IMG/VR virus record: IMGVR_UViG_3300014913_000759 | Location: 28,465 to 92,464 of that record | Origin: a virus | Direction: 5' to 3' (one strand) | Length of the DNA stretch: 64,000 bases | Shown here: one piece after another, positions 1,977 to 30,900 of the stretch | Numbering within the stretch: the stretch's first letter is position 1 | Layout: every line of letters starts with the position of its first letter | Translations under genes and position numbers: made by a program | Notes under the pieces: model-generated | What the model saw: only the letters and a program-made list of their open reading frames with translations | What the model was told of the DNA's origin: nothing | Database searches by the model: none

Positions 1977-2208
1977 CGTCTCCTTTAAACAAGTCTTTTA
2001 TATCTTTCATTCGTGATGCAATCATCACCTCCGGCAACTTCTCATACATCTCGGCCAACTGTGCAAAATCAGCATCTGGGGCCATCAAATGGAACATAAG
2101 AAAAAGCTCTAAGCGTGTTATTTTATTGTCGAGGTAGCTTAGATACTCCCCCAAGGAGTACTCTATTTGCTCTCCATCAGATGTTCTGGTAATATATATG
2201 TTTGGCAT
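1954..2208 (-). CDS. Small hypothetical protein (84 aa)
   Basis: I do not recognise this family. The protein begins with a short beta-like segment (MPNIYITRTSDGEQIEYSLG), has a helical, leucine-rich middle (about residues 22-65), and ends in an acidic, lysine-containing tail (LFKGDDDGNKGD). There is no signal peptide, membrane segment or cysteine motif. Its start shares a base with the stop of the thymidylate synthase homologue (TAATG at 2208), and its end overlaps the following glycosyltransferase. This is good evidence that it is translated as part of the operon. A small accessory protein is possible, but nothing supports a specific role. Confidence 0.6.
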   Translation of the reverse strand: MPNIYITRTSDGEQIEYSLGEYLSYLDNKITRLELFLMFHLMAPDADFAQLAEMYEKLPEVMIASRMKDIKDLFKGDDDGNKGD

Positions 2209-2909
2209 TACTCTGACCTCATTGTCCTTATTTTGGCCAGTTCCCAGGCGTAGTCATATAAATGTAGGCCTTTAGTGGCGGCCACCAACTCACCATCATC
2301 CACGCCTATTTCACTAGCCATGTATTCCTTGAGTAGTTGTAAGCCCCCTAAATTGGCGGGCAATCCATTATAGAGATCCCATGACCTGAAATAAACAAAG
2401 AAATGAAGTTTGCCGTTGCTAATTCTAGTATCAATATGCCTCAGACATGGAGGGTCGCCAAGCAAAATATCAGATGGTGCTGATATAGACATAGCTGCCT
2501 GGTTAGTGCCATATCCTTTTGTTTTATACATATCAATAACTTCATCAATCTGGTTGACCATTTTCGGAGACATTATTTCGTGCGTATAATATTGCCAACC
2601 GGCGAGGCGTTCTCCGTAAGTATAATCCTCGTTTGGTTGCTTCATGTTTGTCATAAGATATGGTAAATATTCCTCTATATAACCATCTGCCACGGGGTTT
2701 GGTATACCAAGTGAAGCAGGAATATCGGGAATAAGCGGCCTAACACCTGGGTATTTTACATGTATCGTGATGTAATCAAACTCCAGGCGTTGTTGGCCTA
2801 CGTAACTACCGTGGTCAATAGTGTATTTATGGCCACGGTCTAAAATCCCATACACACACTGAAACCATGCGTCCGGCAAGTCTCTTGCTTTTACTTCAAC
2901 TAAATCCAT
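2208..2909 (-). CDS. Thymidylate synthase homologue (archaeal-type)
   Basis: A 233-residue member of the thymidylate synthase/pyrimidine hydroxymethylase superfamily. The nucleophile motif is DPPCLRHID with Cys155. The phosphate- and base-binding block RSWDLYNGLPANLGG spans 175-189, and HLYDY (216-220) replaces the usual HxYxNH element. The Asn187 that pairs with uracil in dUMP-specific enzymes is retained; T4-type dCMP hydroxymethylases have Asp at this place. A dUMP substrate is therefore the better guess. The length and the wording of the motifs resemble the short archaeal enzymes more than the bacterial ThyA of about 264 residues. It lies between two glycosyltransferases, so production of a modified pyrimidine (for example hydroxymethyl-dUMP) is an alternative to plain dTMP synthesis. 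Confidence 0.83.
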   Translation of the reverse strand: MDLVEVKARDLPDAWFQCVYGILDRGHKYTIDHGSYVGQQRLEFDYITIHVKYPGVRPLIPDIPASLGIPNPVADGYIEEYLPYLMTNMKQPNEDYTYGERLAGWQYYTHEIMSPKMVNQIDEVIDMYKTKGYGTNQAAMSISAPSDILLGDPPCLRHIDTRISNGKLHFFVYFRSWDLYNGLPANLGGLQLLKEYMASEIGVDDGELVAATKGLHLYDYAWELAKIRTMRSE

Positions 2910-14050: not shown

Positions 14051-15181
14051 CTATCTCCTCCTGATTGGTGTAATCAGGGCTTTCTGATCCTGGAAATTGC
14101 CGGAATCAAATATAAAAACGCCTTTTTCGTCTGAGAATTTTATGAGTACTTTATCGTCATTGATGGCTTCTACTGTTTGATAGAGGAACTTACCATTAAT
14201 ATCGATAACAAATCCTTGTGTGTACTCAACATCAAAATCACATTCGAAGCTGGCGTCATCATTGTACAGCTTTATTTTTCCATTTTGAATCTCAAATGTT
14301 AATCGATGATTATCATCACTATTTAACAGCTCTGTGAACGGAGAGATCACGCCCATCAAAGCCTCCTTGTCTGCCGAGATGGTGTGCTCAAAAGTATCCA
14401 GAACCTGTTTATACTGCGGATAGTCCTGACCAATAACCAACCAACCATGAAAAACCACGTCTTCAAACTTGGCTTTTATTTCTCGGCCATCTATCTCAAA
14501 AAATATCTGTGTCTCCTCACCCAAGGCTCTCCTCAAACCCATTATAAAATCGTATCTTAGAATAAAACTTTTGCCAACTAGGTCATTGTTATTCTTAACA
14601 GAATACTCCGAAAGAATACGGCCGTTGGTGCCACAAAAATAGATGTCATCCTCACTAAAAGAAACACTCATTCCTTGGATAAACGTCCTCTGCTCTGTCG
14701 GATCCATCGCATAAATAACTTTGCTGACTGCTTTTTTAAAGATACTTGAATTTAGAATGAAGTTTGCTTTGCCGAATGGCTTAGGCTTTTGCAGTCTCAT
14801 GTCGTTGAAGGTGTCTAACTTCAGGCTTCCTCGGGACTTCTTTCCGTTCTCATGGACAGTCTTGACTGTGACTTTAAGATGCTCATCATAAACAAAACGC
14901 ACATCTTTGGTGCCATATTCGCCGTCCCATGGAGTAAAAGAACTTGCAAAAGACTTGATCTTACCATAAAGGGTGGTAACAGAGCCAGGCTTGCTGACCT
15001 CTGCCTTTTCGGAGAGAACCGTGATGGCCGTAGAGCTATTATTCGAGACAAAAAGGACGGTATTGTCCTCTTTGGCCTCAATAAAAACTTGACCGGTAAA
15101 GTCGTTGACATTGACTTTAGCGGTCACGGCTAACAACCTAATAATCCTCTGTAACTCCTTAGTCTCAATACAAAAATCCAT
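14051..15181 (-). CDS. dnaN: DNA polymerase III beta sliding clamp homologue
   Basis: About 376 residues, equal to bacterial DnaN (366). The N-terminus MDFCIETKELQRIIRLLA matches the first strand and helix of the clamp. The segment GMSVSFSEDDIYFCGTNGRI resembles the domain 2 core (the GVLFE...ATDGHRL pattern). The end FDSGNFQDQKALITPIRRR corresponds to the C-terminal IMPMRL-like tail. I chose the ATG at 15181 rather than the in-frame GTG at 15187, because AAAGGA (15191-15196) is 9 bases from the ATG but only 3 from the GTG. It is the first gene after the only strong promoter region. It should tether the phage polymerase, which is not in this window. Confidence 0.87.
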   Translation of the reverse strand: MDFCIETKELQRIIRLLAVTAKVNVNDFTGQVFIEAKEDNTVLFVSNNSSTAITVLSEKAEVSKPGSVTTLYGKIKSFASSFTPWDGEYGTKDVRFVYDEHLKVTVKTVHENGKKSRGSLKLDTFNDMRLQKPKPFGKANFILNSSIFKKAVSKVIYAMDPTEQRTFIQGMSVSFSEDDIYFCGTNGRILSEYSVKNNNDLVGKSFILRYDFIMGLRRALGEETQIFFEIDGREIKAKFEDVVFHGWLVIGQDYPQYKQVLDTFEHTISADKEALMGVISPFTELLNSDDNHRLTFEIQNGKIKLYNDDASFECDFDVEYTQGFVIDINGKFLYQTVEAINDDKVLIKFSDEKGVFIFDSGNFQDQKALITPIRRR

Positions 15182-15190
15182 GCTCACAAA

Positions 15191-15250: not shown

Positions 15251-15278
15251 ATTATAAGCATAATTCGACTTTTGTCAA
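15251..15278 (-). promoter_or_regulatory. Strong sigma70-type promoter for the replication operon
   Basis: Reading the minus strand, a perfect -35 TTGACA (15278-15273) is followed after 16 bases by a perfect -10 TATAAT (15256-15251). The start point would fall near 15243-15245, about 60 bases before the dnaN start. The DNA just upstream of the -35 is almost pure A/T and could act as an UP element. Its consensus quality suggests early or middle transcription by host RNA polymerase of the genes from dnaN leftwards. Confidence 0.85.
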
Positions 15279-15332: not shown

Positions 15333-15360
15333 AACATAATACAGGATTTGTATTTGTCAA
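15333..15360 (-). promoter_or_regulatory. Second, weaker candidate promoter
   Basis: On the minus strand a perfect TTGACA (15360-15355) is followed 16 bases later by TATGTT (15338-15333), 4 of 6 matches to TATAAT. It points the same way as the strong promoter about 80 bases downstream. It starts just after the stop of the 863-residue repeat protein. It could be a tandem promoter or a chance match in AT-rich DNA. Confidence 0.4.
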
Positions 15361-15368
15361 GAAAAATT

Positions 15369-17960
15369 TTAAACAAATTCAGCCCGGTCATCATAACCCA
15401 AGATGAATTTCTGTGGTTGCGGTGAAATTGAGGCAGATAGGCCGTCGTTTTCAGGCGTGAAATACTTCGGAACTATACGGCATGCCAGGTCTGAGTATGT
15501 TCCGACGGCCTTAATCATACTTGATAGTTCTGCGGAGTCATAAGACGTTACATAGTGTATGGCAAAACGTATAGCCTCATCTAAATTGTTAAACTTGGAA
15601 AGGTCGTATAGTGTCTTGAGACGGTGGAGTTTCCTTCTGACATTAAGTTCGATATCTTCAGGTATATATGAGGCCACGTCTATTTTCCATCTATTAGTGA
15701 TGTCATATTTATATACTTTATTTTCGGCCTCTACCCAGAAATACTCAGGAACTATAGTCTGGAAATAGAGCTCCACCACATTATACCAATTGACCTGCTT
15801 GGCATGATTCAAATCATAAACCAGCTCCCTAACTTTAATATTATCAAACTCATACTCTTGTAACCATACCGGTGTTAATGTAGCACCCATATCGGTGTAC
15901 ACATATGTTCCAGTTATAGTGGCAGACAGGTAGGCACGTTGTTTATAAACATCTATAACTATAGGTATTTTATCCTCAATTCTATAACCCGTACCTATAG
16001 TTAAGGACACCGGTATTCTATCTGCGTGTACATATGAGGCGGCGTAACCCACCGTTGCTCCAAGGTTGGCTTCGTATGTTGGAATATCTTTTCCTGTTAT
16101 CTGTGCTGCCAACTCTTTGAGATATGAAAACTCCATTGTTGCACTCATATCCTTGTGGCCCGAGCCTCTGCATATGAAGTTTATTATACCTCCCAAATTG
16201 GAATGTTCCATAGTAACAACAGACAATGCTGCCGTCATAAATATCATCTTTGGATTAATAAACGCAGACAAAGATCTTGTGTAGCCTTGTGGTGTCAAAT
16301 AGGCACCTAAATTTCCAGGACTATGTGCCGCTATAGATAGTGCCAAATCGCCCTGCTGCATGAGAATTGTCGCTGGGTAGAGATATGCTGTTAAGTCTGA
16401 GGACACCTCTACTGCCTTCGCTGCCTTTATATATGCCGGCAAATCTTTAGGTTCACCGGTGATATTTATATAAGCTTGTAGATCATTTGGGCCATATTTA
16501 CCATTAAGATATGCTGGCAGGTCTTTCGTGTCCCAACCATGGATAAATCCTGACAGGTCTTCCGGCTCTATACAAAACACGTATGCTGTCAAATTCTCAA
16601 GATACGTTCCTCGAATGTAACCACTAAGGCCTTCATATTGCAGCGCTCTAATCCAACCGGCTAGATCGAACGTGGCCTCTCTAACCCACCCTTTAATAAG
16701 TGCTGTAATGTTTTTAGGTGGATGTGCGGCTACGTACGCTGGCAACTGGCGCATGTCGTTCCAGTCTATAAATGCGCCTAGATCAGACTGCTGCCAACCA
16801 TGAATATGGCCAGGAAGATGACCCATTGGCCACACCTTCAAATAGCCCGGCAAATCCTGTGGCGGTACTGGGTGTAGCTCCGCTGGAAGGTCGATGTACT
16901 GTAGCGCATTCAAGAAAGCAGGAAGATCTGCATCTCCTGGGTACATCTGTCTTAAGAAACCACCCAGATCTCGGAATTCTCTAGGCTGCGCAAAGATATA
17001 TGCTGGCAAATCTTCAGAGAAAATTTTAGAAATTATAGCTCCCAAGAAATCAACACACCTATAGCGCTGCCTACCTTGTACGTACTGCGGTACGCCATCA
17101 TCATAACCTATAAAATAGGCTTTAGGCGTCAGTGCCTGACAGTAAGAACCAACAACACTTGCTCCAAGGCTGCTGGGGTGCGTTACTCCGCCAACAATAT
17201 TAGCCGTTAAATCTCTATATTCACTAAATATTTCATGACCTGCTATGATAAAAGAGCCCAGATCAGCCTGAGAGGATGTCCAGCCTCTAATCGTACTTGG
17301 TAAATCTTCTTGTGATGTTTTCCAAGCTCTTATGAAAGCAGGCAAAAAATCAACACATCTGTATATTGGCCTGCCACCCAGGAACTGCGGAACACCTTCA
17401 TCGTATCCTATAAAATACTGCTTTGGTGAGAGTTGCTGACAACGTACACCCGTTATAGCGGTTGTCATGCCACCTATAACCCCGTACTCCGCGCCTCTAA
17501 TGAACCCTGACAAATCTTTTTGGCCGTGAAAAAACTCCTCTTCTAAACCGGTAATCTCGGCTGTTATATCTTTTGTGGATTGCTGTAAAGAGCGCAGTCT
17601 TGCCGACAGAAAATCAACACATCTAAATTCCTGTTTAGTTTCTAAGAATTGTGGCTCGCCACTGTCATAACCTATAAAATAGCTCTTGGGGCCAAGCGAC
17701 TGACATCTCACAGCCGCTATTGATGCGGTTAAATTGCTTGGTAGGTGGCCTGTGATTGAGGAGCCAAGCGAGCCTTGTGCCGTAATGGTAGAATATCCTA
17801 AAATAGACGCGCCTAGATTGCCATGACTATATAGTCCTGCATCGCCTGCAGGATAGAGCTTCTGGTATGAGCCATCCTTAAGTGCCCATCTAAGCACCTG
17901 GGAACCAGAATAGCCAGCAGGAAAGATCTTAGGGTATGTAGTTTGTCCTAATATTGGCAT
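15369..17960 (-). CDS. 863-residue repeat protein, probable virion surface/fibre protein
   Basis: I do not recognise this family. Two repeat systems are visible. First, three long repeats at about 86-117, 174-206 and 274-306 share C-Q-x-L-x-P-K-x-YFIGYD and YRCVDFL, each with two conserved cysteines. A degenerate fourth piece (KFILGYDD) is at the C-terminus. Second, between about 130 and 600 are some twenty short units of the form [D/N]-L-[P/S/G/T]-[A/G]-[Y/F]-[I/L] (for example DLPAYL, DLSGFI, NLGASI) at 12-20-residue spacing. The C-terminal third (about 690-800) is different, charged and partly helical. Similar short units occur in the gene at 48792-49625. A beta-stranded fibre is likely. 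TAATG overlap with the upstream gene. Confidence 0.72.
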   Translation of the reverse strand: MPILGQTTYPKIFPAGYSGSQVLRWALKDGSYQKLYPAGDAGLYSHGNLGASILGYSTITAQGSLGSSITGHLPSNLTASIAAVRCQSLGPKSYFIGYDSGEPQFLETKQEFRCVDFLSARLRSLQQSTKDITAEITGLEEEFFHGQKDLSGFIRGAEYGVIGGMTTAITGVRCQQLSPKQYFIGYDEGVPQFLGGRPIYRCVDFLPAFIRAWKTSQEDLPSTIRGWTSSQADLGSFIIAGHEIFSEYRDLTANIVGGVTHPSSLGASVVGSYCQALTPKAYFIGYDDGVPQYVQGRQRYRCVDFLGAIISKIFSEDLPAYIFAQPREFRDLGGFLRQMYPGDADLPAFLNALQYIDLPAELHPVPPQDLPGYLKVWPMGHLPGHIHGWQQSDLGAFIDWNDMRQLPAYVAAHPPKNITALIKGWVREATFDLAGWIRALQYEGLSGYIRGTYLENLTAYVFCIEPEDLSGFIHGWDTKDLPAYLNGKYGPNDLQAYINITGEPKDLPAYIKAAKAVEVSSDLTAYLYPATILMQQGDLALSIAAHSPGNLGAYLTPQGYTRSLSAFINPKMIFMTAALSVVTMEHSNLGGIINFICRGSGHKDMSATMEFSYLKELAAQITGKDIPTYEANLGATVGYAASYVHADRIPVSLTIGTGYRIEDKIPIVIDVYKQRAYLSATITGTYVYTDMGATLTPVWLQEYEFDNIKVRELVYDLNHAKQVNWYNVVELYFQTIVPEYFWVEAENKVYKYDITNRWKIDVASYIPEDIELNVRRKLHRLKTLYDLSKFNNLDEAIRFAIHYVTSYDSAELSSMIKAVGTYSDLACRIVPKYFTPENDGLSASISPQPQKFILGYDDRAEFV

Positions 17961-19936
17961 TATCCGCTCGTAGTTGCCACTGGTGTCATGAACATCGCAC
18001 CAGCAACGTCGTAGTCTAATCCATATCTTCCTGGTTTATAGAAGGTAACCACAAACCTCTCGTCGGGCGAAGCCGGAACTCCAATCTCAAAATGGCCGTT
18101 AGCATCCGTAACATCAGAGACTACAAACTCGCCATCTAAATCAGAAACTATAACATTACAAGGTTCTGTTAATAATCTACTATATTTATCGTGAACTGTT
18201 CCAGAAATAACACTCGGTGGATAATTTTGTTCTGGACCGTAGGACACTAACGTATCCCAGGTAGAGTTATAGCTGGCCTTTATATACGACCCCGACCTAT
18301 CTGTTTTTGAAATTCTGACCTCATCTAATATACCATCAAAAGAATAATAACCATCCATATATCCTATATAATTATACCCATCCGTATTGGCCACAGTGGT
18401 TGTGTTTGTTGCCACCTGGCTACCTGCCCACTCACCATCTTTATATCTTTGTAGATTATCGCCAGTCCAGACAAAATCTATAGCTGTCCACACATCCTGT
18501 GATATAGATATGGTTCTGGAAGGCTGTGATGCGTCCGCCATCTCACACTGACAAACTATAACACTGCTACCACTGTTGCAGTAAACCCAAGGCACTCTTT
18601 GCCCACCACTGCCTCTAGCAAATATGGCCCTATATTGGTCGAATGGTACAACATCGGCTTTAAGAACAAAAGATAGTGTAAAAGATGATTTGCCATCTAA
18701 TTCCGAAAGGTTGCCTCCCATATTCACATATTCGGTTGACGAAGGATCAAAATTCAAGCCGCGGCCTGCTTTAGCGGTTAACAAATTTGGCGTGCTGTTT
18801 GGTGTGCCATGATTGACTAAACTAGTAGAATCTTTTACACTATTTGATCCGCTTGGACTAGAACCATCATTTTCCATATGGTACACACCAATGTAATCAC
18901 TATCCCACACGTTTTTTGCTGCAGCATCTCCTAGTTCTCCAATATAATCAGTATTATCTGTTTTAGTGTAATCGTAGTATAGATATAGTTTAGTATCCCT
19001 ATCTGCGTAAACCGTTGGTACCTTAGTCCATGCTATACACCTATTTAATCTAAATTGAAGGTCTTCCAGCTCGACAGGTAACTGTGTTCCATTTTCGTCT
19101 GTTATAGCCATCTTTTGTCGACCATAAAAATGCCGTATGGTTCCTGAGTTTACAACAAAATTATCCACATACGCAACTAGTGTTGTATCTCCGCTTGAAT
19201 AGTCGTAATTATATAGAAGGTGGAATGTTTCAGTGTTTGAACTCCAACTCCCAATTGAAGAGGAGCCTGCGGTTATCCATCCACCTCCTACATCATAGTA
19301 CAGTGTCATAGTGCTTCCGCTTCTTATGTGCCGTGTTTTCCACGAGGTCGGATTGTGATAATAGGATGTACCATAAGTGCTTGCACCACCATTTACTATT
19401 CTAGATCTAAACATCATAGGGTTTGTTGGGCCATAAGAGGCGGAATCATATATTACCTGCATCATGGCGTAGTTGGTGCTTGGATTGTCTTTATCTCTTG
19501 TATAGGTATATAGTAAGAAATATTCAGAATCTGTTTCTGCAGCATCATAACCCGAATGATATTCTAGACTAAAAGAAGTTGTTATGAAATTCCATCTCGT
19601 ATAGGCTCTAAGTTGTGCGTAAAGATTAGTACCTACGGTGGTGCCACTCATGGTGAGTTTATTATCTGCTACATAAAAACTTGCACCAGTCGGTGTGCCG
19701 AGTGACCATGTTTTTAGGTTTATTTCGCCGCTAGTAAAATCATCACTAAAATCATAGTCGGCCTCACTAAGCTCAGCCTTCATACCCGACATTACATCAG
19801 CACTGTTGGTGCCGCAACTGTTTCTGAGATTTAAAAACAGAGGAAAATCATTAATGTCTTCATCAATAAGATCGTGATCTATGGTTATCTCTATTCTTTT
19901 TGCCCAATCTGATAACCAACTACTATTGAATGTCAT
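17960..19936 (-). CDS. Modular surface protein: DUF2341-like, LamG-like, carboxypeptidase-regulatory-like
   Basis: A 658-residue beta-rich protein. Residues about 8-360 form the DUF2341-type unit: WAKRIEITID at the start, then DFPLFLNLRNS, a long inserted jelly-roll segment, and finally QLPVELEDL and TKLYLYYDYTKTDN. Residues about 375-565 form a LamG/concanavalin-like lectin domain (YIGVYHMEND, GRGLNFDPSSTEYVNMGG, FDGILDEVRIS). Residues about 575-650 resemble a carboxypeptidase-regulatory-like (CarboxypepD_reg) unit. The C-terminal AGAMFMT element is shared with the next gene product, indicating paralogy. No signal peptide is present, as expected for a virion protein. Binding of host or mucus glycans is inferred. 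Confidence 0.78.
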   Translation of the reverse strand: MTFNSSWLSDWAKRIEITIDHDLIDEDINDFPLFLNLRNSCGTNSADVMSGMKAELSEADYDFSDDFTSGEINLKTWSLGTPTGASFYVADNKLTMSGTTVGTNLYAQLRAYTRWNFITTSFSLEYHSGYDAAETDSEYFLLYTYTRDKDNPSTNYAMMQVIYDSASYGPTNPMMFRSRIVNGGASTYGTSYYHNPTSWKTRHIRSGSTMTLYYDVGGGWITAGSSSIGSWSSNTETFHLLYNYDYSSGDTTLVAYVDNFVVNSGTIRHFYGRQKMAITDENGTQLPVELEDLQFRLNRCIAWTKVPTVYADRDTKLYLYYDYTKTDNTDYIGELGDAAAKNVWDSDYIGVYHMENDGSSPSGSNSVKDSTSLVNHGTPNSTPNLLTAKAGRGLNFDPSSTEYVNMGGNLSELDGKSSFTLSFVLKADVVPFDQYRAIFARGSGGQRVPWVYCNSGSSVIVCQCEMADASQPSRTISISQDVWTAIDFVWTGDNLQRYKDGEWAGSQVATNTTTVANTDGYNYIGYMDGYYSFDGILDEVRISKTDRSGSYIKASYNSTWDTLVSYGPEQNYPPSVISGTVHDKYSRLLTEPCNVIVSDLDGEFVVSDVTDANGHFEIGVPASPDERFVVTFYKPGRYGLDYDVAGAMFMTPVATTSG

Positions 19937-19937
19937 C

Positions 19938-22169
19938 TTAGTATCCTCCTCCGCTTATTGTTGTACCGCTTAGTGTTGTCATATATTCTGCACCAGCCAG
20001 GTATGTAAGACCTTGATACGTTCCAGGAAAACTATAAGTTACTAGAACAGTGTCGCCAGGTTCTTTGCCGAAAATCTTCATGGAAAATAGGCCTGTACCG
20101 GAAGCTGCTGTTGTGTGTGCCAAAACTTTCCCTCCGACCTCATCGAGTGCAACTACATAACATATGTCATCCATATGTAGACCGTATCTATTAGTACATT
20201 CACCTTCCACATAAGAATATGGGTCAAATGAAATCAACCCATTAAATGTGTTGTGATGCTCGGCCTTCAGCCAGGCTGCTGATCTGGAGCCATTTGTTAT
20301 TCTTACCTCATCTATTATTCCGTCCCAATACATACCAGAACCATCAATCCTTGCTCCTATATCCAATTCATTAGTTGTGTTTTCTTTAAAAACATCGACT
20401 AAAGAAGTAGTAGCTGAAACCGGCTGACCATCAATATACAAGGTTGCAGTGTTGTTACCTTGTGTCGCTGTGTCCGTCGTAGCTACGACAGCAACGCTTT
20501 TAAATTCGCCATTGTTGATGGCGCTGGCCGTCGTATATATTTGTGAAACACCGCTAGTATTACCATAGTTATAATTTAAACATCCGGCTCCGTGGACGTA
20601 ACCCATGTACAAACCCCAACCACCATTTGCATTGTTAGTTCCATGTCCAAGGATAGCTCTGCCGTCCGTGGCTGTGGTCTTAACAATAGCTGAAGCAGTA
20701 AAGGTTTTGTTGGAAAAGTTCATTGGGTCGCCTAGGTCTATATAATCGTCATTGCCATCAAAATCCAAAGCTTTGCCGGCTCTTCCGTCTACCAAATCGC
20801 CAGTCAACATAGATCCGCCAGATGTTCCGTGATGCAATCTACCGGAAGAATCTTTTATAGCGTCTGTTCCGCCTGAAGGGTCTTGACTAAGACGATAAAC
20901 ATATTGAAAATCTATCCATACGCCGACAGCAGCGTTACCAAATTGCCATCTTTCGGCATTTGTATTTGAATGTGTATACAATATAGAATACGGGTGAGTA
21001 GTGTCCCACCCACCATACCATAATCTATATACACCATCATCATTTATAATACTAGCGGAATAGGTGCGTGTCGCGTCATAAGTTCCTTCTAGGCCGACAT
21101 CAAAAACTCTCAGCGGTGTTGACCAGGACGTTCCATTAGTAGACGTGGTGTGCAATAACCTGAAAACATTAGAAGAATCATTTCCAGAAGGGTACATTGT
21201 ATAAGTTGTGCCTTCTTTTATAACGGGACCTGGGTAAATTTGTGAATAGGCATCGGAGGTTCCGAAGTTTATAACTTGCTGATGGCCTGTCCAAGTCGTG
21301 CCGTTAGTAGATTGTGCATAACAAACTCTATAAGCAAAGCCGTCTTGACCTCCATACCACATCTTATATGTGGTGCCATCTTTAATTACATAAGGGGTTG
21401 AGCAATGTACACTATCTGCCGATATATTTCCTGGCGCCATAACTTGTTGGAAATTTGACCAGCTTTCGCCATCTGTCGATGTACAGTAGATTATGCTCCA
21501 ATATGACCCACCATGGCCAGCGTACCACATCTTATATGTAGAGCCATCTTTAATGACTGTCGGAGATGTGGTGTGCACGGTATCGTAGGTGCCCTCTGAG
21601 CCTAAATCTATAATCATTTTATGGCCTTGCCAGTTATTAAGAGTGCCTGACGAGACACAATAACCAATTCTCCATCTATCAGGCGTAATCGTTCTCATAC
21701 CGTACCACATCTGGTAATCATCATTGTTTTTTAAAACCGTGGGCCAGGACGCTGTTTTGTCGTCATATGTTCCTTCGGTGTTTGCTTGAACCTCCACAGT
21801 AGCGTGTACATCTGTAGCCTTACTCACGTAATCTACGTTATCCGCTTTCGTAGAATCATAATATAAATACAATGTTGTATCTACACTAGAATACAGTGTC
21901 GGTACTTTAGTCCATAGGTGTGCAATCTCTTCCGTCGCATCCCAATACTCGACCTCCACCGGTAGTTGTGTTTCGCCGTCTGCGGATGTGATCGCTATTT
22001 TCTTATAAGAAGGCCCGACCTCATCAAACACAGGGGTAGCATCAAAGTCGCCTGCCGTACCCGTACCACTAGAGAGTGTAATCAAGACGGGAAAATCTGT
22101 TAGATTACTATCTATCTTGCTGCTGTCTAGTGTAAGACGCATTATGTTTGACCAGTCTAACCAAGCCAT
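19938..22169 (-). CDS. Modular surface protein with embedded five-bladed beta-propeller and LamG domain
   Basis: A 743-residue protein. It has a DUF2341-like N-terminal unit (about 1-130; LTDFPVLITL, QLPVEVEYWD, TTLYLYYDSTKADN). Then five similar blades lie between about 135 and 430, each with a [Y/T]-x-M-W-Y-x-G core and a following [I/V]-x-Y-[C/A]-x-S-[S/T]-[D/N]-G strand. This is the pattern of five-bladed GH43/GH32-type propellers. A LamG domain (about 445-655; GRAGKALDFDGNDDYIDLG, WDGIIDEVRI) and a C-terminal regulatory-like domain ending AGAEYMTTLSG follow. I could not identify a catalytic acid triad, so the propeller may only bind glycan. It is paralogous at both ends to the preceding and following genes. 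Confidence 0.78.
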   Translation of the reverse strand: MAWLDWSNIMRLTLDSSKIDSNLTDFPVLITLSSGTGTAGDFDATPVFDEVGPSYKKIAITSADGETQLPVEVEYWDATEEIAHLWTKVPTLYSSVDTTLYLYYDSTKADNVDYVSKATDVHATVEVQANTEGTYDDKTASWPTVLKNNDDYQMWYGMRTITPDRWRIGYCVSSGTLNNWQGHKMIIDLGSEGTYDTVHTTSPTVIKDGSTYKMWYAGHGGSYWSIIYCTSTDGESWSNFQQVMAPGNISADSVHCSTPYVIKDGTTYKMWYGGQDGFAYRVCYAQSTNGTTWTGHQQVINFGTSDAYSQIYPGPVIKEGTTYTMYPSGNDSSNVFRLLHTTSTNGTSWSTPLRVFDVGLEGTYDATRTYSASIINDDGVYRLWYGGWDTTHPYSILYTHSNTNAERWQFGNAAVGVWIDFQYVYRLSQDPSGGTDAIKDSSGRLHHGTSGGSMLTGDLVDGRAGKALDFDGNDDYIDLGDPMNFSNKTFTASAIVKTTATDGRAILGHGTNNANGGWGLYMGYVHGAGCLNYNYGNTSGVSQIYTTASAINNGEFKSVAVVATTDTATQGNNTATLYIDGQPVSATTSLVDVFKENTTNELDIGARIDGSGMYWDGIIDEVRITNGSRSAAWLKAEHHNTFNGLISFDPYSYVEGECTNRYGLHMDDICYVVALDEVGGKVLAHTTAASGTGLFSMKIFGKEPGDTVLVTYSFPGTYQGLTYLAGAEYMTTLSGTTISGGGY

Positions 22170-22177
22170 ATATCCTC

Positions 22178-24664
22178 CTACTCACCTACAATTAGGTCTG
22201 TTGGGCTTCCTGTAAATGTTTCTGTAGCCACCAACACATTATTTTCTATGTGACTTATAACATTATTAACCAAATAAAGATCCAAATTATCAAAAGTTGA
22301 ATCTGAACTGGCCCAGATGCTGCCATAGTTGTCATTAGATCCTGCCGCAACGCGAGATGTATATGCTTCAGAGTTTTTCTCTTGCATCTCCCACTCAGCA
22401 ATACATATTTTGCCGGTGTTGGCGTTCCAGTTGCCGATCGCCTTCAGCTTATATTGATAATAATACGTGTTGTTAGTAAATGTATATTCTTGCCAGTTTG
22501 TATTACGTGGTGTATATGTGTTCTTTAAACCGATAAGCTCAGTCCAATTTGTTAGATCGTTCGAGCCATAGAATACGATTTGTTTTGGAAAATACGCATA
22601 CATAGAATCAAAACCTACGGGTTTTAATCTCAGCTTTGATACTATTTTCTTGCCCACGCTAGCACTATTGCGTGACATTTTCCATTCTTGTAGTGCTATA
22701 TTGGAACCATAGGTGTCAACAACATAAAGTCTATAACTTCTGTATGCAATGTTGTTATCAAATACAACAGTTTGCCAAGTCGCAGACTGAGAGAACTGGC
22801 CGGTATGAAGAGTAACCCATTCCTCATCACGTGGATGTAAAAAAGAACCCTCTATTCTATAATTTTTAGGCATTCCACTAAGTGTGTCTGACACACCTTT
22901 AACTGATAAAACCGCTACCTTGTAAATCTTAGATTCAAAATCTATGGCAGCCCAACCACTGGTAGTTGTAGACCGCCAAAAAGCGTTGCCAGACTCATCA
23001 GTATCATTGTCGGATAATTTGGACGCGTTTCTGTATCTTACGTGTCCATCGTCATAATGTAAATAGTTTGTGTCAGTAACATCACCATTGTAGGAACCAA
23101 AATCTATAGTCAGCTCTATGCCTGCGCCGGCGGCGTCTCCGTCATCACTACACCAAATGTTATCTAGAGCGTTTATAATGTTGTCTGATAATTTTGTTGG
23201 GTCTCCGCCCGACACAGAGGTAGATGTGTGCTCATAGTTTACGAGTGTTAGATCTGGGCCATAATCATACTCTAGTACATCAGGGTCTATACGTTCCTCT
23301 GTCAAGAGATTACTAACGTCAAACTCCGGTTCTGGGGAAACATACTCTCTAATAATAACCCAGTCTATTTCACCGTTACTTCCGTACGTACCTCTTCCAC
23401 GCACTCTAAAATTGTCAAGCCACGTATTGCCCTCACAGGATCTTTCCCAAGAATCTAAATAATCTGTATATGTATTTCTTCCGCTTACACCTTGGTGTAT
23501 GGTATCAGTAGGTTCATGATATGTAATTATATGTCTATTATAGCTCTGACCTTCTATACCTTTTTCAGTGCCTGTGTCTGCTCCTGCTCCTCCGCACTCA
23601 AAATTATGTGTCCTGTATGTATCGCCGTATGCGCCGTAGCTTACATAATTTTCCCATGCCCAGTCGAAAATAAAATAATCGTACGACACGTATCCTGTAC
23701 TTGGTGAAGCATCTTCTATCCAAACATATGTCTCCAGTGCCCAACTGCGCACACCATTAAATATGTTGCCTTTCGTTTGTATATAATCTGGCAACGGGCC
23801 AGGGTATACTCTAGAGCCCTTAATAGTATAAGAGCCAAAAACAGACCATTTGGAGGTATCTATAGATGTACCAAGAAAATCATCATAAAGTAAAAAATCA
23901 ATAGAATCAGGGTCAGATATTCCTGAATCATTCTCTTTGCCCCAAAAAGCATACAGCTGTTTAGTTTCGTTTGCTGACAAAGAAGGTATATTAAGCCATA
24001 CAATTGCCTCCTCATTAGCAACGTCCCACTTTTCGATCCACATTTTCCATATATGACCACCGTTCCAATCCTCACCAACCCTAAAATCACCACTTCCATG
24101 CGCAAAGAGCTGGATGATTCCCAGACTAGTATATGTGTTGCCGTGGTTACTTAACACATCAAACTTATAATACCTATATGTTTCTGAGCTATCGACATCA
24201 AATGATTGTAGGTTGCCGTTTGCTGCCGCATTTCCTGTGAGTAGCTCATACCACACGCTATTGTCGTTGGAACCACTAAGCTTAAAACTATCCACCATCT
24301 GATCGTTGCCGGCGCTATTCCAACGTTGTAATTCTAATCGGCCAACGGCCAACGATGTACCTAAATCCACTTTCCACCAAGCCGTAGAAACATTGATTCT
24401 CCAATAGTCATCAACATGGTTATAAGTAGAACAATCCTCAGGGCCACCTTGAAAAGCGGAAGACGCATAATGTGTCATATTCTCATTATTTGCCCTTGGG
24501 CCGCCAACAGAAAAACTTTTTGTCTGTGAAAAATCAAAAGTTGTAGCATCTAAAATTAACTTAACAGGATAATTCGTTAGATCCTCTCCAGATCTTTCCG
24601 TTATAGTTAACTCTTCTCTATACAAATAATGTGATGAATCTATGTTAGCAGCATAATCTGCCAT
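22178..24664 (-). CDS. Modular surface protein with discoidin-like (F5/8 type C) domains
   Basis: An 828-residue protein. It opens with a DUF2341-like unit (LYREELTITERSGEDLTNYP) that is interrupted by a discoidin-type segment (about 55-185). In that segment WWKVDLGTSLAVGRLELQ and FKLSGSNDNSVWYELLTG are classic F5/8 type C strands. DUF2341 continues with KMWIEKWDVANEEAIVWLNI and a jelly-roll part. Two more discoidin-like stretches follow (about 500-680 and 690-780), with YRIEGSFLHPRDEEWVTLHT and IVFYGSNDLTNWTELIGL as markers. Such domains bind glycans or lipids. The nesting of one module inside another is unusual. It sits in the array with 2-9-base spacing. Confidence 0.76.
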   Translation of the reverse strand: MADYAANIDSSHYLYREELTITERSGEDLTNYPVKLILDATTFDFSQTKSFSVGGPRANNENMTHYASSAFQGGPEDCSTYNHVDDYWRINVSTAWWKVDLGTSLAVGRLELQRWNSAGNDQMVDSFKLSGSNDNSVWYELLTGNAAANGNLQSFDVDSSETYRYYKFDVLSNHGNTYTSLGIIQLFAHGSGDFRVGEDWNGGHIWKMWIEKWDVANEEAIVWLNIPSLSANETKQLYAFWGKENDSGISDPDSIDFLLYDDFLGTSIDTSKWSVFGSYTIKGSRVYPGPLPDYIQTKGNIFNGVRSWALETYVWIEDASPSTGYVSYDYFIFDWAWENYVSYGAYGDTYRTHNFECGGAGADTGTEKGIEGQSYNRHIITYHEPTDTIHQGVSGRNTYTDYLDSWERSCEGNTWLDNFRVRGRGTYGSNGEIDWVIIREYVSPEPEFDVSNLLTEERIDPDVLEYDYGPDLTLVNYEHTSTSVSGGDPTKLSDNIINALDNIWCSDDGDAAGAGIELTIDFGSYNGDVTDTNYLHYDDGHVRYRNASKLSDNDTDESGNAFWRSTTTSGWAAIDFESKIYKVAVLSVKGVSDTLSGMPKNYRIEGSFLHPRDEEWVTLHTGQFSQSATWQTVVFDNNIAYRSYRLYVVDTYGSNIALQEWKMSRNSASVGKKIVSKLRLKPVGFDSMYAYFPKQIVFYGSNDLTNWTELIGLKNTYTPRNTNWQEYTFTNNTYYYQYKLKAIGNWNANTGKICIAEWEMQEKNSEAYTSRVAAGSNDNYGSIWASSDSTFDNLDLYLVNNVISHIENNVLVATETFTGSPTDLIVGE

Positions 24665-24666
24665 AG

Positions 24667-27600
24667 TTACCTCACTGACGCCAAATCAGACACCGGCTCT
24701 CTTATTTGACCAGCTATTGGTTGTGAAAATGTAATCAAATTGTCTCTTTCACTTTCGTATTGGGCAGCAATGTAAGATGCGCCCTTAGTGCTGTCGAATA
24801 CACGAACTTCATCCAATCTCCCAGTCCAAGTATTGCTCGAACCGGTACTATCGTGTCTTCTTCCTATAAACCACGTACCAGTAGTCGGTAATGTATGACC
24901 GCAGCCCGATATGTTGCTCTGAGAGCCATTAAGATATATCCTAAAATCACTTGCTTCTGTAACTACGACGACGTGGACCCACGTGCCTGTAGAAGTAAAC
25001 GTACCGTTTTGTAACAACCAGTGGTAAGTGCCTGCGTGGCCGCCTTTAAACTTGCTAGCCGGACCATCGTAAAACAGCGCAATCCTTATATTACCTGCTG
25101 ACGTGCCCTGCGTTATTAAACCACAATAGTCCGACTTGCCACCAAGACTATTAGCATAGGCCCAACAGGAGATGGTCATCTGGTTGCCGGAAAAGGTCTG
25201 AGATCCTATATCTATATATTTATCACCAAAATATAGGCATTTGCCTATACCAAGCCTTCCATCTACTAGATCTCCAGAAGTCCACGTAGCACCAGCATTA
25301 GTAGGAGTTCCGTTTCTTATAGTTGTGGAAGAATCTAAAATACAACCGGATCCTCCCGTCGGATCTTGATTTAAATGATAGACCATACCACTATCGCTGG
25401 TTCCCCAAACGGCCTTGGCAGCCGTAGAACCAATATCACCTACATATGTTGTGTTATCAGCCCAGCTGTTATTCCACTTCATATACAAGGTTGTGTCTTC
25501 CGTAGCAGAAATGGAGGGAACTTTAACCCAAAGCTCTGCTTCCTTGCCAGAATTATCCCACCTCTCTATCTCAACATAGCACTCGGTACCATCAGCAGTA
25601 ACGACCTTTAGTTTCTTACTATTGGCGCCGAGGTCATCGAAGATTGAGGTGTTATCATAATCATTTATGCCTGAAGAATCACTTAGCCTAACAAAAACAG
25701 GAAAATCTGTCTTAGTGCTGCTGATTTTTGAAGAATCTATTGTTAGTTCCAACCCCGTGTCGCTATCAATAACTTCTGGTGAGCTTAGCCAATACTGTCT
25801 TACAACATCGTTATAAATTGCATTTAGTGCAGCACCTTCGCCTCTCGATGCTACCGCAAAACTTGTATTATAAAAAGTAGAATTAGGTTCTGCTGTAATA
25901 GCTATAAAGTTTGTCGATGTTCCTTTCAAAATTCTACCTTGGTTGGTAAAAAAGTAATATGATGGTGACCACTCTTCGCTCGGTTCGCTGCCACTATAAG
26001 TTGTAAACCACCGATAGTAATGGCCGGTGAGTGGAGCGAGGCCACTCAATGTGGCAGTAAAACTACTTCCAGAAGTCTGTAGACCAATAGAAACGGAGCT
26101 TTGCCATGAGGCTTTAACAGTACCTTCATCGGAAGTACCGTAATAAACCGACACAATACCGTCATGGTTACTGCTTGGTATTGAGCCATAGAGTGTGGCC
26201 TCATCGTGTGAAGGAAACGTTGGAGATGTTGTATTAGAAATCCCTACTAAATATTCGGCATCATCAAACGTCAGTAAGTTATCAAAAATACTTTGGTTGG
26301 ATGTTCTTATCCAGTCACCGGAACGCGCCACATTAGAAATACGTACCTCGTCAATGGTTCCATCAAAATAACCGGGGTCATCCGTCTCAGCAGCGCCGAA
26401 CCGAACATTGCTGGTCGAAGAATTTAACGTACCTGTAAATGTAGTGCTATTTTCTTCGTAGCCATCTATATAAACACGCACAGTATTTCCGTCCCAGGAA
26501 CCAACTACATAATGATCAACATTGTCTGATAAATCTGTAGATCCGGTTACTGTTGTGAGCTCCGAATTAGTCCTAAAAGGTATAAAACTCAACTCTCCAG
26601 TGGCATTTTTTCTAAACTGCCACGAACGTTGGTCAGGATTATCATCTTTAGAAACTAACTGCGATGTGGCGGCTTGGTCGGTTTTTATAACAGCCTCTAC
26701 GGTTATATAGTTTACATTAAATTTACTGTCATTTCCTGCCAATAAATATTCGTCGACACCATCTAACTCGTTGCTGGCGCCTATTAATGAGTATCTATAA
26801 TCTGCAGTAACCATAGAACCTTTCGGTGTTGCATGCAACACATTTATAGAAGAATCCTCTATTCTATCTGTAACATCTTCGTAGGGCCGTTGCGACATAT
26901 GCCATACACCAACATAATTATCCTCCCAAACTCCCGATGCTGATGTCGGAGCAGCTGCTATGTAGGCAGTGTTGTTGTCCAACTCACTGTTATAATATAG
27001 ATAAAGCTGTGTGTTGGTTCCGCTGGATAGAGTGGGTATTTTTGCCCACACATATGCCATTTCACGATTTGGATCCCAATAATCTATCTCCGCCGGGCAT
27101 TGTGTCGTACCATCAGATATTGTAATGGCAATTTTTTGTTTATTTTCATCGGATCTCGCCTTAATAACTCCATCTGCAGAATTTATGGTGAAGTTGTCCC
27201 AGCTTACATCCCAAGTTGCAGCGTCTCTTCTTATGTATCTTAGGTATACGCGAGCATCACCGGTAGTGGTGGTTTCGGTGGTATAACCAGACGAACTGCC
27301 TTCCCACTGCCACATCCCGCTACTCCAATAAAACACTTTTGTAACAGTGCCAACACGTGTTATTCTAAATTTTCCTGGTCCATAGTCTGCTGTGCCGGTT
27401 TTTTCGTTAGATGGTGGGTTAGCTATGTATCTTGGAGACGTATCAGGCTTCATGGTTCTAGCAATATAAGCCGAGCCTCCACCATCATATTGTACTTGAA
27501 AATACATATAATGGTGGCTAGAAGTAGGTGCCGTATGGTTGTTCATTTGCCAATCTACTTGTATATCAAAATCTCCAACTAACTTAAAATTACTCTTTGC

Positions 27601-27927
27601 GTACAGCTGATCTGTAGTGGAACCAACTGTATTCATTCTAAGTTTGTTGCTAGATATATATGGGTAATCATCGTCGGTAAGACTCCACAAAAACCAACGA
27701 ACTTCGTTTGGAGGATCGTTGTTCGTTCCAGTAAAGGTATCATCTGAGTCCACCTCAACTAAAAACTCATTAAAAACCTTAGTTAGATCTGCATTATTTC
27801 TACCAGAGGAGCTGGAGATCTTTATAAGTGCTGGAAAATCTGTAAGGTTTTCAGATAATCCACCAGATATAGTTGTGGGGTCTATTGTAATCGGTATTCT
27901 TCTTTTCCAACCAGGTAGCCAAGCCAT
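24667..27927 (-). CDS. Modular surface protein: two DUF2341/LamG pairs joined by a fibronectin-like unit
   Basis: A 1086-residue protein that looks like an internal duplication. The first half has DUF2341 (WKRRIPITID, LTDFPALIKIS, AYVWAKIPTL) and a LamG domain (YVGVWHMSQR, ASNELDGVDEYLLAG, FDGTIDEVRISN). A fibronectin-III-like spacer follows at about 575-670 (ATLSGLAPLTGHYYRWFTTY). The second half starts with another DUF2341 copy (TDFPVFVRLSDSSG, ELWVKVPSISATEDTTLYMK) and another LamG domain (CLYFGDKYIDIG, WTGRLDEVRVFDS). Start chosen at the MAWLPGW motif common to the array. Probable carbohydrate-binding tail or decoration protein. Confidence 0.78.
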   Translation of the reverse strand: MAWLPGWKRRIPITIDPTTISGGLSENLTDFPALIKISSSSGRNNADLTKVFNEFLVEVDSDDTFTGTNNDPPNEVRWFLWSLTDDDYPYISSNKLRMNTVGSTTDQLYAKSNFKLVGDFDIQVDWQMNNHTAPTSSHHYMYFQVQYDGGGSAYIARTMKPDTSPRYIANPPSNEKTGTADYGPGKFRITRVGTVTKVFYWSSGMWQWEGSSSGYTTETTTTGDARVYLRYIRRDAATWDVSWDNFTINSADGVIKARSDENKQKIAITISDGTTQCPAEIDYWDPNREMAYVWAKIPTLSSGTNTQLYLYYNSELDNNTAYIAAAPTSASGVWEDNYVGVWHMSQRPYEDVTDRIEDSSINVLHATPKGSMVTADYRYSLIGASNELDGVDEYLLAGNDSKFNVNYITVEAVIKTDQAATSQLVSKDDNPDQRSWQFRKNATGELSFIPFRTNSELTTVTGSTDLSDNVDHYVVGSWDGNTVRVYIDGYEENSTTFTGTLNSSTSNVRFGAAETDDPGYFDGTIDEVRISNVARSGDWIRTSNQSIFDNLLTFDDAEYLVGISNTTSPTFPSHDEATLYGSIPSSNHDGIVSVYYGTSDEGTVKASWQSSVSIGLQTSGSSFTATLSGLAPLTGHYYRWFTTYSGSEPSEEWSPSYYFFTNQGRILKGTSTNFIAITAEPNSTFYNTSFAVASRGEGAALNAIYNDVVRQYWLSSPEVIDSDTGLELTIDSSKISSTKTDFPVFVRLSDSSGINDYDNTSIFDDLGANSKKLKVVTADGTECYVEIERWDNSGKEAELWVKVPSISATEDTTLYMKWNNSWADNTTYVGDIGSTAAKAVWGTSDSGMVYHLNQDPTGGSGCILDSSTTIRNGTPTNAGATWTSGDLVDGRLGIGKCLYFGDKYIDIGSQTFSGNQMTISCWAYANSLGGKSDYCGLITQGTSAGNIRIALFYDGPASKFKGGHAGTYHWLLQNGTFTSTGTWVHVVVVTEASDFRIYLNGSQSNISGCGHTLPTTGTWFIGRRHDSTGSSNTWTGRLDEVRVFDSTKGASYIAAQYESERDNLITFSQPIAGQIREPVSDLASVR

Positions 27928-27930
27928 GGT

Positions 27931-30900
27931 TTATTCCTCCAACAAGTACCATTTATATCTAGAATTTGCTTCATTTCCAGGACGTTCCTCGATTAGAGCC
28001 ACGCCACTAGACGTTGCTGCAAATATCAAGTTTGCTCCATTATATATAGATGTGCCCTCCACAACGGAGATATCATTTATCACACCTCCTGGAGGTAATA
28101 GCGTTCCAGATATTGTCGAATCATACTCATATCCGATTGTACCTTCTGTCCAATCGCATTGATGGGTGTAGATGGTTACGATTTTTGTTCCCGCTGCGTA
28201 GTAGAAACGACCACGACAAGTCTGAAAGCACTTCGTTGCTGCAGCAGTCAGTCCGCTACTGTGGTCGTAAGAGCTAGATCTTCCTAAATTAAAATGATCT
28301 ACACCTGAGGCCGTAACAGCACATACATAATCACCACAGGCACTTATATCCTTTACGTAGTTGTCCAATATGTCTGGATATTGTTTCCACAATAAAACCT
28401 CACCAGTAAGATCTTGTGGTGAATATATGTTTTCATTAGTAATAGTAGTAGTAGGTATATATAATATACCAGATGTTGTTGTACCTATCAACAGCTTCTC
28501 ATTTGATTCAGCTATAGCATTTACACCACTTAATGTAGCGTACGCTATGTAATAGTCCGTACTTACATCTACATTATATATTTCTATACCAGAGGTAGAT
28601 ACGTTATAGATAGGATTATCATATATACAGTATACGGTATCTGGACTAGATAGTGGTGTTATCTCTAATGTACCATAAGTTAATAGACTATCTGTTATGG
28701 AAGCGTAGTCTGTTTCCATCCAGTTATCTGAACGTACTGTAGAGGATATCCTTACTTCGTCTATCATACCATCGAAGTGTGCGCTACCTCCTGTTTGGCT
28801 TCCTATCTCTACTACTTGGTCATTGTCTGATTGGTTTAATGATGTATATGTTTGTGTACCCGTGAAGCCTACAGACTCTCCATTGATGTAGACAGACTCT
28901 ACACCAGTGCCGTCTGAAAACGTAAAGGCCACGTGATTCTCTCCGGCGCCGGAAATTGTACTGGCGCCTGTCAGTGCCTGTTCTGCCCAGGCCGTGCCAT
29001 CACTACTACCTATTATCACCTGTAATTGGTCACTGGCTGTGGTTTTTAGTGCCCAAATTCTCCTGTCAGACGAACTATTGAATCTGGTAATGAGCGCGGA
29101 GACTTCTGACGCGTCTGGTTTGAAAAGAGTAGACACTGTTAAATCGGTGGAGTCTAGACAGTCGTAGTCTCCTGTATATAATCTCTCGTCGGTACCGTTA
29201 AATTGCAATGCTCTGCCCAATGTACCGGTCACGGTGTTTGCCAAGCCCATATTTTCTGTTGTGACGTCTAGATGGTGTATAGAACCCTTCTGAGTTGCTG
29301 GATACCTATCCATATGCCATACGCCTATATGGTCATCATCCCATACTTCCTTCTTTACAATATCTGTACCTACTTTTATATGGCCTACATTGGTTCTTTG
29401 CAATGCGGTTGCGGCGCCATAAGCCCTAAAAAATATGTTTCCTGAAGGATACGTTTCACCTTTATTACCCCATACCTCTGTGTTCTCAACAACTTTGTGG
29501 CCATTCATGTAAACATCGACGATTCCAGAGCCCGTTGCTACCTCTGTCCAATCAACAACCCACGAGTACCAAACACCATTATCCATTGTATGTGGATAAA
29601 CAAGATTCCATGTAGCCGTATCATCATATAGATATAGCCCTTCGGCCGCAAATGTCATAAGAAGTGCGGAATCAGGGCCTCTAAAATACGCTTGAAACTT
29701 GTCATTATCGGCATAAGTTCCGATTCTTCTATGGTTTAACTCGAATTCTATTACCACTCTTTCAGCATAACCGGATGTGAATGTTTTGTGTCTGCAGGCC
29801 CTATTGCTGCTACTATAATTGAAGCCACTGAAGAATTCAAAACTGCCTCCTTCAACAGTCATCCTACTATCACCGTTAGCGTTATCTAGGTTTGTCCAAC
29901 CAGAAAGACTCGAACAGTCGTCGTCAACAAGGTTGGCAGTGCTTTGAACTATGGGCGCACCGACATAATCTGTGTCTCCTGCTTGGTTTTCATCGTAGTA
30001 TAGATATAATGTAGTATCAGTACTATTAGATAGGTCTGTTTTAGTCCATAATATAATCTCTTCGTTTTCAAAGTTCCAGCTTTCTATCTCTACTGGTAAT
30101 TGTGTCTCTCCATCGTCTGTTGTTAATGCTATATTTCCTATATTATGGTTAAGAGTGTCTGGATCACCTATTTTAGAGTAGTCCTGGTATGTTCCTGTAA
30201 GTTCGCTAACTAAATCTCCTGATAGGTCTACATCCATTATAACATTATCACCGGCGTCGAGAAATCTGCACCAGTATAATGTAAAACTTGTGTTGTACCC
30301 AGATAAATGGTCTCTTACATACCATACAAAAGTTACGTAGTCTTGTAAACTATTATCTAGATCTAGTGTATCCTTTATTGTGTGCTGTGAGCTTGAGGAT
30401 TCCTCATAGTCTAGTTGCTGAATAGTACCGTAGCCCGCTATAGACCAACTATCCTCGTAAGGGAAATTAGCTCCGTCCGTTCTATCAAACTTACCATCCA
30501 TCACTTTTGCAAAGTACCCAACGTTTCCGTAATTGCCGCCTGTTTCCCAGCTAAATTCTACTTGCGTGCCGGGAGGTAAAAGCTCCTTATGTACTGAAAA
30601 GAATATATACATCGAGCCCTGCGCTGAATTATTAGATGTTATTCGTGCCGAGGTGGATGTTGGTTTACTAAAAACAGAAGCAGGTGAGCCTGACTCGAAA
30701 ACATCATGTTCTTTCAGACTAACACCAGGAATATCTGTATAATCAAACAAAGTCCCAAATAGTTGTGTAATATCAGCATTATTCTTGCCAGACGCCGCAG
30801 ACAGCTTTACCATCAAAGGAAAATCAGACAAATCCCCTGGTATATCAGCTGGATCTATTGTAATTGGTAGTCTTTTTGACCATCCGTCTAACCAACTCAT
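27931..30900 (-). CDS. Modular surface protein: DUF2341-like, LamG-like and C-terminal propeller-like segment
   Basis: About 989 residues when started at the ATG at 30900. I prefer this to an upstream ATG at 30921 because it follows GGGAGG by 10 bases, forms a TAATG overlap with the preceding stop, and gives the array-typical beginning MSWLDGWSKRLPITID. Domains are DUF2341 with a long insertion (about 1-310), a jelly-roll segment (about 320-490), and LamG (about 510-720; HIGVWHMDRYP, GRALQFNGTDERLYTG, FDGMIDEVRISS). The C-terminal 250 residues have repeated short strands (for example YIAYATLSGVNAIAESNEKL), like a small propeller. Probable receptor or glycan binding role. Confidence 0.77.
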   Translation of the reverse strand: MSWLDGWSKRLPITIDPADIPGDLSDFPLMVKLSAASGKNNADITQLFGTLFDYTDIPGVSLKEHDVFESGSPASVFSKPTSTSARITSNNSAQGSMYIFFSVHKELLPPGTQVEFSWETGGNYGNVGYFAKVMDGKFDRTDGANFPYEDSWSIAGYGTIQQLDYEESSSSQHTIKDTLDLDNSLQDYVTFVWYVRDHLSGYNTSFTLYWCRFLDAGDNVIMDVDLSGDLVSELTGTYQDYSKIGDPDTLNHNIGNIALTTDDGETQLPVEIESWNFENEEIILWTKTDLSNSTDTTLYLYYDENQAGDTDYVGAPIVQSTANLVDDDCSSLSGWTNLDNANGDSRMTVEGGSFEFFSGFNYSSSNRACRHKTFTSGYAERVVIEFELNHRRIGTYADNDKFQAYFRGPDSALLMTFAAEGLYLYDDTATWNLVYPHTMDNGVWYSWVVDWTEVATGSGIVDVYMNGHKVVENTEVWGNKGETYPSGNIFFRAYGAATALQRTNVGHIKVGTDIVKKEVWDDDHIGVWHMDRYPATQKGSIHHLDVTTENMGLANTVTGTLGRALQFNGTDERLYTGDYDCLDSTDLTVSTLFKPDASEVSALITRFNSSSDRRIWALKTTASDQLQVIIGSSDGTAWAEQALTGASTISGAGENHVAFTFSDGTGVESVYINGESVGFTGTQTYTSLNQSDNDQVVEIGSQTGGSAHFDGMIDEVRISSTVRSDNWMETDYASITDSLLTYGTLEITPLSSPDTVYCIYDNPIYNVSTSGIEIYNVDVSTDYYIAYATLSGVNAIAESNEKLLIGTTTSGILYIPTTTITNENIYSPQDLTGEVLLWKQYPDILDNYVKDISACGDYVCAVTASGVDHFNLGRSSSYDHSSGLTAAATKCFQTCRGRFYYAAGTKIVTIYTHQCDWTEGTIGYEYDSTISGTLLPPGGVINDISVVEGTSIYNGANLIFAATSSGVALIEERPGNEANSRYKWYLLEE

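What the first reader, a model, noticed from the sequence alone, without database searches (positions are those of the whole stretch)
15369..17960. 863-residue protein with two superimposed repeat systems
Three long repeats contain conserved C-Q-x-L-x-P-K-x-YFIGYD ... YRCVDFL blocks. About twenty short L-[P/G/S]-[A/G]-[Y/F]-[I/L] units lie between and after them. I know no family with this pattern. The paired cysteines in each repeat suggest a crosslinked or metal-bound fibre.
Basis: seen in the sequence. Interest (0 to 1): 0.62.

Follow-up and report, generated by a model that had tools for sequence, protein, structure and literature searches.

The report
New repeat family of phage fibre proteins
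The gene encodes a real, heavily repetitive protein that belongs to a previously unnamed family found only in uncultured large phages, most likely a rod-like virion fibre whose hairpin knobs are pinned by cysteine pairs; it is new as a protein family but probably not as a kind of machine.

Summary
The 863-aa ORF (minus strand) has three ~36-aa Cys blocks and about 30 copies of a 12-residue unit (29 strict matches; 0.4 expected in shuffles). No Pfam, PHROGs, NCBIfam or PDB profile matches it, and tblastn finds nothing in 50,697 phage or 72,556 plasmid records. It is not an orphan: I found a family in about 20 distinct uncultured viral loci (contigs up to 298 kb). The gene is single-copy and usually sits between the fibre genes and a beta-clamp gene. 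All members share the 12-residue array and a C-terminal domain of ~110 aa. The Cys block occurs 0, 1, 2 or 3 times and always has exactly two cysteines. They take one of three spacings, all symmetric about the same predicted hairpin turn, so the two cysteines move together, as a disulfide would. Two distant members are fused to LamG domains, and LamG/F5_F8 fibre genes lie upstream, so a virion fibre is the best reading. That function is inferred: AlphaFold gave no usable fold (pLDDT 32 and 58). New protein and repeat family; probably a variant of a known kind of structure.

The parts
15369..17960 (-). 863-aa repeat protein (the finding)
   Evidence: full-length syntenic relatives L001 (72-73% aa identity) and L086 (54% in alignment A4; 47% by blastp)
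17607..17705 (-). Cys block A, residues 86-118 (C86...C114)
   Evidence: predicted beta-hairpin 93-99/102-107 in the low-confidence model
17343..17441 (-). Cys block B, residues 174-206 (C174...C202)
   Evidence: hairpin 181-187/190-195
17043..17141 (-). Cys block C, residues 274-306 (C274...C302)
   Evidence: hairpin 281-287/290-295
16257..17012 (-). main array of 12-residue units, residues 317-568 (consensus x-x-D-L-[PGS]-[AG]-[YFST]-[IL]-x-G-x-x)
   Evidence: same array in relatives
16158..16214 (-). conserved segment TMEHSNLGGIINFICRGSG, residues 583-601; C597 invariant in all 11 rows of alignment A4
15525..15869 (-). C-terminal conserved domain, residues 698-812 (YF[YW]..., DEA.R)
   Evidence: found in 20 of 21 family proteins (the other is cut short by its contig); AF2 pLDDT 57.7
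17960..33800 (-). upstream fibre module: six large genes with Laminin_G_3, DUF2341, F5_F8_type_C, CarboxypepD_reg or Vgb_lyase domain matches
14051..15187 (-). downstream gene: DNA polymerase processivity factor (beta clamp); usual downstream neighbour in the near clade
15251..15278 (-). consensus sigma-70-type promoter TTGACA-16-TATAAT in the gap after the repeat gene; a second, 10-of-12 site at 15333-15360
   Evidence: twin TTGACA boxes in the same gap of L001, L086, L085, L054, L055

Best explanation
The protein is the last gene product of the tail-fibre module and a member of a phage-specific repeat family described here. Shown: a 12-residue repeat array and a conserved C-terminal domain present in every complete member; a Cys-block module in 0-3 copies; single copy per genome; conserved position next to the fibre genes. 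Inferred: the 12-residue units (alternating L-x-A-x-I, then G and a turn) are beta-strand-plus-turn rungs that stack into a rod (beta-solenoid or intertwined trimeric beta-helix). The Cys blocks are beta-hairpins protruding from the N-terminal part of the rod, each stapled by one intramolecular disulfide, and could present receptor-binding or partner-binding surfaces. The C-terminal domain caps or oligomerises the rod or joins it to other fibre proteins. The protein would work as a virion fibre or scaffold alongside the LamG/F5_F8 carbohydrate-binding-type proteins encoded just upstream.
For: Repeats far above chance. Family membership by full-length synteny and profile comparison: near against distant clade E=5e-49 over 516 columns. 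Single copy in 7 long phage records of 92-298 kb. Upstream genes carry LamG/DUF2341/F5_F8 domains, and in distant members L044 and L069 LamG domains are fused to the repeat protein itself. Cys pairing: every one of 18 blocks has exactly two Cys, in three spacings with midpoints within half a residue of each other; P=0.007 under a uniform null; Cys density is 36/738 in blocks against 26/8495 outside. The window-type and single-copy-type blocks are homologous by profile (P=2.8e-7, same register). Beta-strands are predicted at many units and a hairpin in each block even in the poor model. Protein constraint: changes concentrate at third codon positions.
Against: No structure: full-length AF2 mean pLDDT is 32, C-terminal domain 57.7, and Foldseek has no match with E<=0.001. 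Block homology between clades is not significant with a plain HMM trained on one clade (about 10 bits for the window clade, 15.5 bits for L037), only with profile-profile comparison and position. No virion proteomics exists, and disulfides in a protein assembled in the cytoplasm need oxidising conditions later. In L063, L069 and L037 the immediate neighbours differ somewhat, so the operon argument is not universal.
Confidence: 0.62

Rival explanations
1. The protein is a virion protein but not a fibre: a tail-tip, baseplate or capsid-decoration scaffold whose repeat array is a platform for the LamG proteins, with no receptor-contact role.
For: It is conserved and single-copy across the lineage while the genes upstream vary in content, which is more like a scaffold than a fast-evolving receptor-binding tip; the C-terminal domain is conserved.
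Against: The array length and the number of Cys blocks (0-3) vary between relatives, as fibres do; fusion to LamG in L044 and L069.
Confidence: 0.22
2. The Cys pairs bind metal or are unpaired structural cysteines rather than disulfides.
For: Cytoplasmic assembly is reducing; no direct evidence of oxidation.
Against: Only two Cys per block, with the best-conserved neighbours aromatic and glycine rather than His/Cys/Asp sets; concerted, symmetric relocation in three spacings is what a cross-strand bond predicts.
Confidence: 0.15
3. It is a secreted or non-virion phage product (for example a surface-exclusion or host-modifying factor).
For: It sits at the boundary with the replication module, just before promoter-like sites; no virion protein of this phage is experimentally known.
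Against: Its start codon overlaps the stop of the upstream fibre gene, its reading direction and gene order continue the fibre module, and two distant members carry LamG domains like those genes. Signal peptides were not tested.
Confidence: 0.1
4. It is a diverged member of a characterised solenoid or fibre repeat family missed by the libraries (pentapeptide repeat, hexapeptide LbH, triple beta-spiral, 12-residue antifreeze solenoid).
For: The A-[DN]-L feel of pentapeptide repeats and the 12-residue period of insect antifreeze solenoids (recalled, not tested by structure).
Against: No meaningful Pfam match for P0001 or ten relatives; period 12, not 5, 6 or 15; no PDB sequence match.
Confidence: 0.15

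Closest known systems
Phage trimeric beta-helical fibres and spikes (T4 gp5 C-terminal spike; PMC4576200, abstract only)
   Same: A beta-structured repetitive rod in a phage tail protein is the proposed architecture
   Different: A 12-residue DLxAxI unit instead of the shorter repeat of gp5 (period recalled); no sequence or profile similarity; carries Cys hairpin blocks
Disulfide-crosslinked phage Milano tail (PMC10811340, abstract)
   Same: Shows that phage virion tails can be held by disulfides
   Different: Milano is reported to crosslink tail components including sheath subunits; here the symmetry argues for one bond inside each hairpin
Tentaclins (phage receptor-binding proteins, PMC10743442)
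   Same: Modular phage adhesin with variable domain number and an exposed beta-hairpin
   Different: Tentaclins are defined by a C-type lectin domain plus Ig domains; Pfam found neither here; DGR not looked for
LamG/DUF2341 fibre proteins of the same phage
   Same: Same operon; LamG domains fused to distant family members
   Different: The focal protein has no LamG, DUF2341 or F5_F8 domain

Membership tests
Family defined here (12-residue array plus C-terminal DEA.R domain) | Array of D-L-x-[AG]-x-[IL] units with a dominant 12-residue spacing | tested here: met
Family defined here (12-residue array plus C-terminal DEA.R domain) | C-terminal domain with YF[YW]... and DEA.R | tested here: met
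   20 of 21 proteins, E about 1e-35 or better (these sequences contributed to the model)
Family defined here (12-residue array plus C-terminal DEA.R domain) | Position between fibre genes and the clamp/RecA/DnaB replication module | tested here: met
   for the window and most relatives; in L037, L063 and the distant clade another gene intervenes or stands in place of the clamp
Pentapeptide repeat proteins | A(D/N)LxX repeats with period 5 and a Pfam pentapeptide model match | tested here: not met
   period 12; no Pfam match
Tentaclins | C-type lectin domain followed by Ig-like domains | tested here: not met
   no Pfam match of either kind
Triple-stranded beta-helix fibres | Trimeric intertwined beta-helix | not testable with these tools
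   only monomer prediction is offered and it failed
Disulfide-bonded hairpin | Two Cys facing each other across antiparallel strands | tested here: inconclusive
   symmetry and co-occurrence in 18 blocks and hairpins in a low-confidence model; no coordinates or chemistry

The most novel reading that the evidence does not exclude
The 12-residue array forms a beta-fold not yet seen in any solved structure, and the family marks a large unrecognised lineage of uncultured phages (92-298 kb contigs) that build fibres from it, decorating the rod with a variable number of disulfide-stapled hairpins.
Probability: 0.35. Interest if true: 0.65.

Novelty: new variant of a known kind. Interest (0 to 1): 0.48.

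Why it matters
It turns an apparent orphan into a testable family with about 20 members, a defined repeat, a shared C-terminal domain and a natural series (0, 1, 2, 3 hairpin blocks) in which one can ask what the blocks do. The three interchangeable cysteine spacings are an unusually clean evolutionary experiment on cross-strand disulfides in a phage protein. The gene can also serve as a marker for a phage lineage whose virion genes are almost invisible to current libraries.

Tried and rejected
A fourth partial Cys block at the C-terminus: rejected as unproven (block HMM about 2 bits or less). Many hits of the 12-residue DNA pattern are low-complexity 4- or 6-residue repeats and were discarded by reading the translations. 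YFIGYD pattern hits other than L015 are unrelated proteins. Bacterial genome hits of the KGWVREAT pattern are false: no repeats in them. tblastn of relatives and of the array alone in cultured phages: nothing, or E about 2. An alignment of nine relatives was too diverged for a locus scan. Structure: both AF2 models too weak; Foldseek matches meaningless. PDB profile hits to SpaS at E 0.19-0.95 are chance. Block homology with a one-clade HMM: not significant, shown only by profile-profile comparison. Tree of the C-terminal domain: too few supported forks to count independent changes of Cys spacing. Papers on 12-residue repeats or DUF2341 in phages: nothing relevant.

Full report
What is there. 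The window lies in a 92,464-base viral record. The ORF at 15369-17960 is on the minus strand and encodes 863 aa. It has three blocks of the form C-x27-C around YFIGYD and about 30 units of a 12-residue repeat, x-x-D-L-[PGS]-[AG]-[YFST]-[IL]-x-G-x-x. A strict unit motif occurs 29 times against 0.4 in shuffles. In 14 family proteins 468 units were found against 52 in shuffles, with 173 exact 12-residue neighbours against 0.23.

Known families. Pfam, PHROGs, NCBIfam and PDB searches found nothing meaningful for it, and ten relatives likewise lack any convincing match other than LamG in two of them. tblastn in 50,697 phage records and 72,556 plasmids found nothing.

Relatives. The closest is L001 (IMGVR 3300034152_001169, 71-73% identity, same gene order, three Cys blocks). 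A DNA pattern for three consecutive 12-residue units, then a KGWVREAT pattern and profile-based scans, gave about 20 distinct viral loci. Near and distant clades align at E=5e-49 over 516 columns (shared repeats contribute to this score). The C-terminal domain of about 110 aa is found in 20 of 21 proteins (the other is cut short by its contig), with Y, D-E-A and R invariant. Seven long records of 92-298 kb each have one copy. A public pattern scan of 84,980 bacterial and archaeal genomes gave only unrelated hits, so I found no prophage; that scan used one short motif and is not exhaustive.

Context. Upstream lie six large genes with Laminin_G_3, DUF2341, F5_F8 and related domains. The start codon of the repeat gene overlaps the stop of the last of them. 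Downstream come the beta clamp, a 201-aa protein, a protease-like protein, a RecA/UvsX recombinase and a DnaB helicase, in the same order in relatives. The gap between the repeat gene and the clamp holds a full-consensus promoter and a second one, and twin TTGACA boxes are kept in five relatives. The repeat gene therefore closes the fibre module. In the distant members L044 and L069 LamG domains are fused to the C-terminus of the repeat protein.

The Cys blocks. The block is present three times in the window and L001, twice in L086, once in ten others, and is absent in L112 and in the distant clade. Each block has exactly two Cys. Measured from the conserved Gly of the [IV]G[YF] motif they sit at -6/+13, -11/+17 or -16/+22: three arm lengths about one centre (sums 7, 6, 6). 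If the second Cys were placed at random this agreement would have P=0.007 (three spacings, so a modest test). Cys are rare elsewhere in these proteins (26 in 8495 residues), and several relatives have only three in all. The low-confidence model draws a beta-hairpin around that centre in all three blocks of the window protein. I conclude that the pair most likely forms a disulfide within each hairpin. The window-type and single-copy-type blocks are homologous by profile-profile comparison (P=2.8e-7, same register), although an HMM of one type does not find the other significantly. The three copies were made before the window and L001 lineages split: corresponding copies are 76-86% identical, non-corresponding ones 57-70% (37-residue comparison).

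How it probably works. Shown: repeats, family, gene position, Cys symmetry. Inferred: the alternating L-x-A-x-I pattern makes each unit a beta-strand and turn; many of them stack into a rod; hairpins stapled by a disulfide stand out near the N-terminal end; the C-terminal domain caps, oligomerises or attaches the rod; the whole serves as a virion fibre or scaffold next to LamG-type carbohydrate binders. Neither AF2 model is good enough to test this (pLDDT 32 and 58), and Foldseek gave no match. Disulfides in phage tails have a precedent in phage Milano (PMC10811340, abstract).

Novelty and verdict. As a protein family and repeat it is new to the libraries searched; as a kind of thing it is most likely a phage fibre. 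I file it as a new variant of a known kind, with a minority chance (0.35) that the fold itself is new.

Noticed in passing
window 15251-15278 and 15333-15360, minus strand; same gap in L001, L086, L085, L054, L055: Twin sigma-70-like promoters (one a 12-of-12 match, TTGACA-16-TATAAT) separated by an A/T-rich tract, conserved ahead of the beta-clamp gene.
   Followed up: partly
L003:16912-18831 (minus strand; outside the window, record bases 16912-18831): Phage-encoded UDP-glucose/GDP-mannose dehydrogenase that carries intein-splicing and LAGLIDADG domain matches.
   Followed up: no
L051:1322-3508 (minus strand): RecA of a related phage interrupted by an insert of about 360 aa with intein-splicing and LAGLIDADG matches; the window's own RecA is uninterrupted.
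   Followed up: partly
window 855-4280 and L003/L004 around 15978-27000: Many sugar genes: glycosyltransferases, a PfkB-type sugar kinase, an NAD-dependent epimerase/dehydratase and a nucleotide-sugar dehydrogenase, suggesting glycan modification.
   Followed up: no
window 40920-63939: Presumed virion half of the genome: the roughly 20 ORFs scanned with PHROGs gave only three weak matches of unknown function at E<=0.01, and five large ones no convincing Pfam match; no terminase or capsid gene was recognised.
   Followed up: partly
L004:7028-7903 and L043:1326-2372: A CapR-homology protein, 44% identical between the two phages, in different places: beside recA in L043 and far from it in the window's record; looks mobile.
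   Followed up: no
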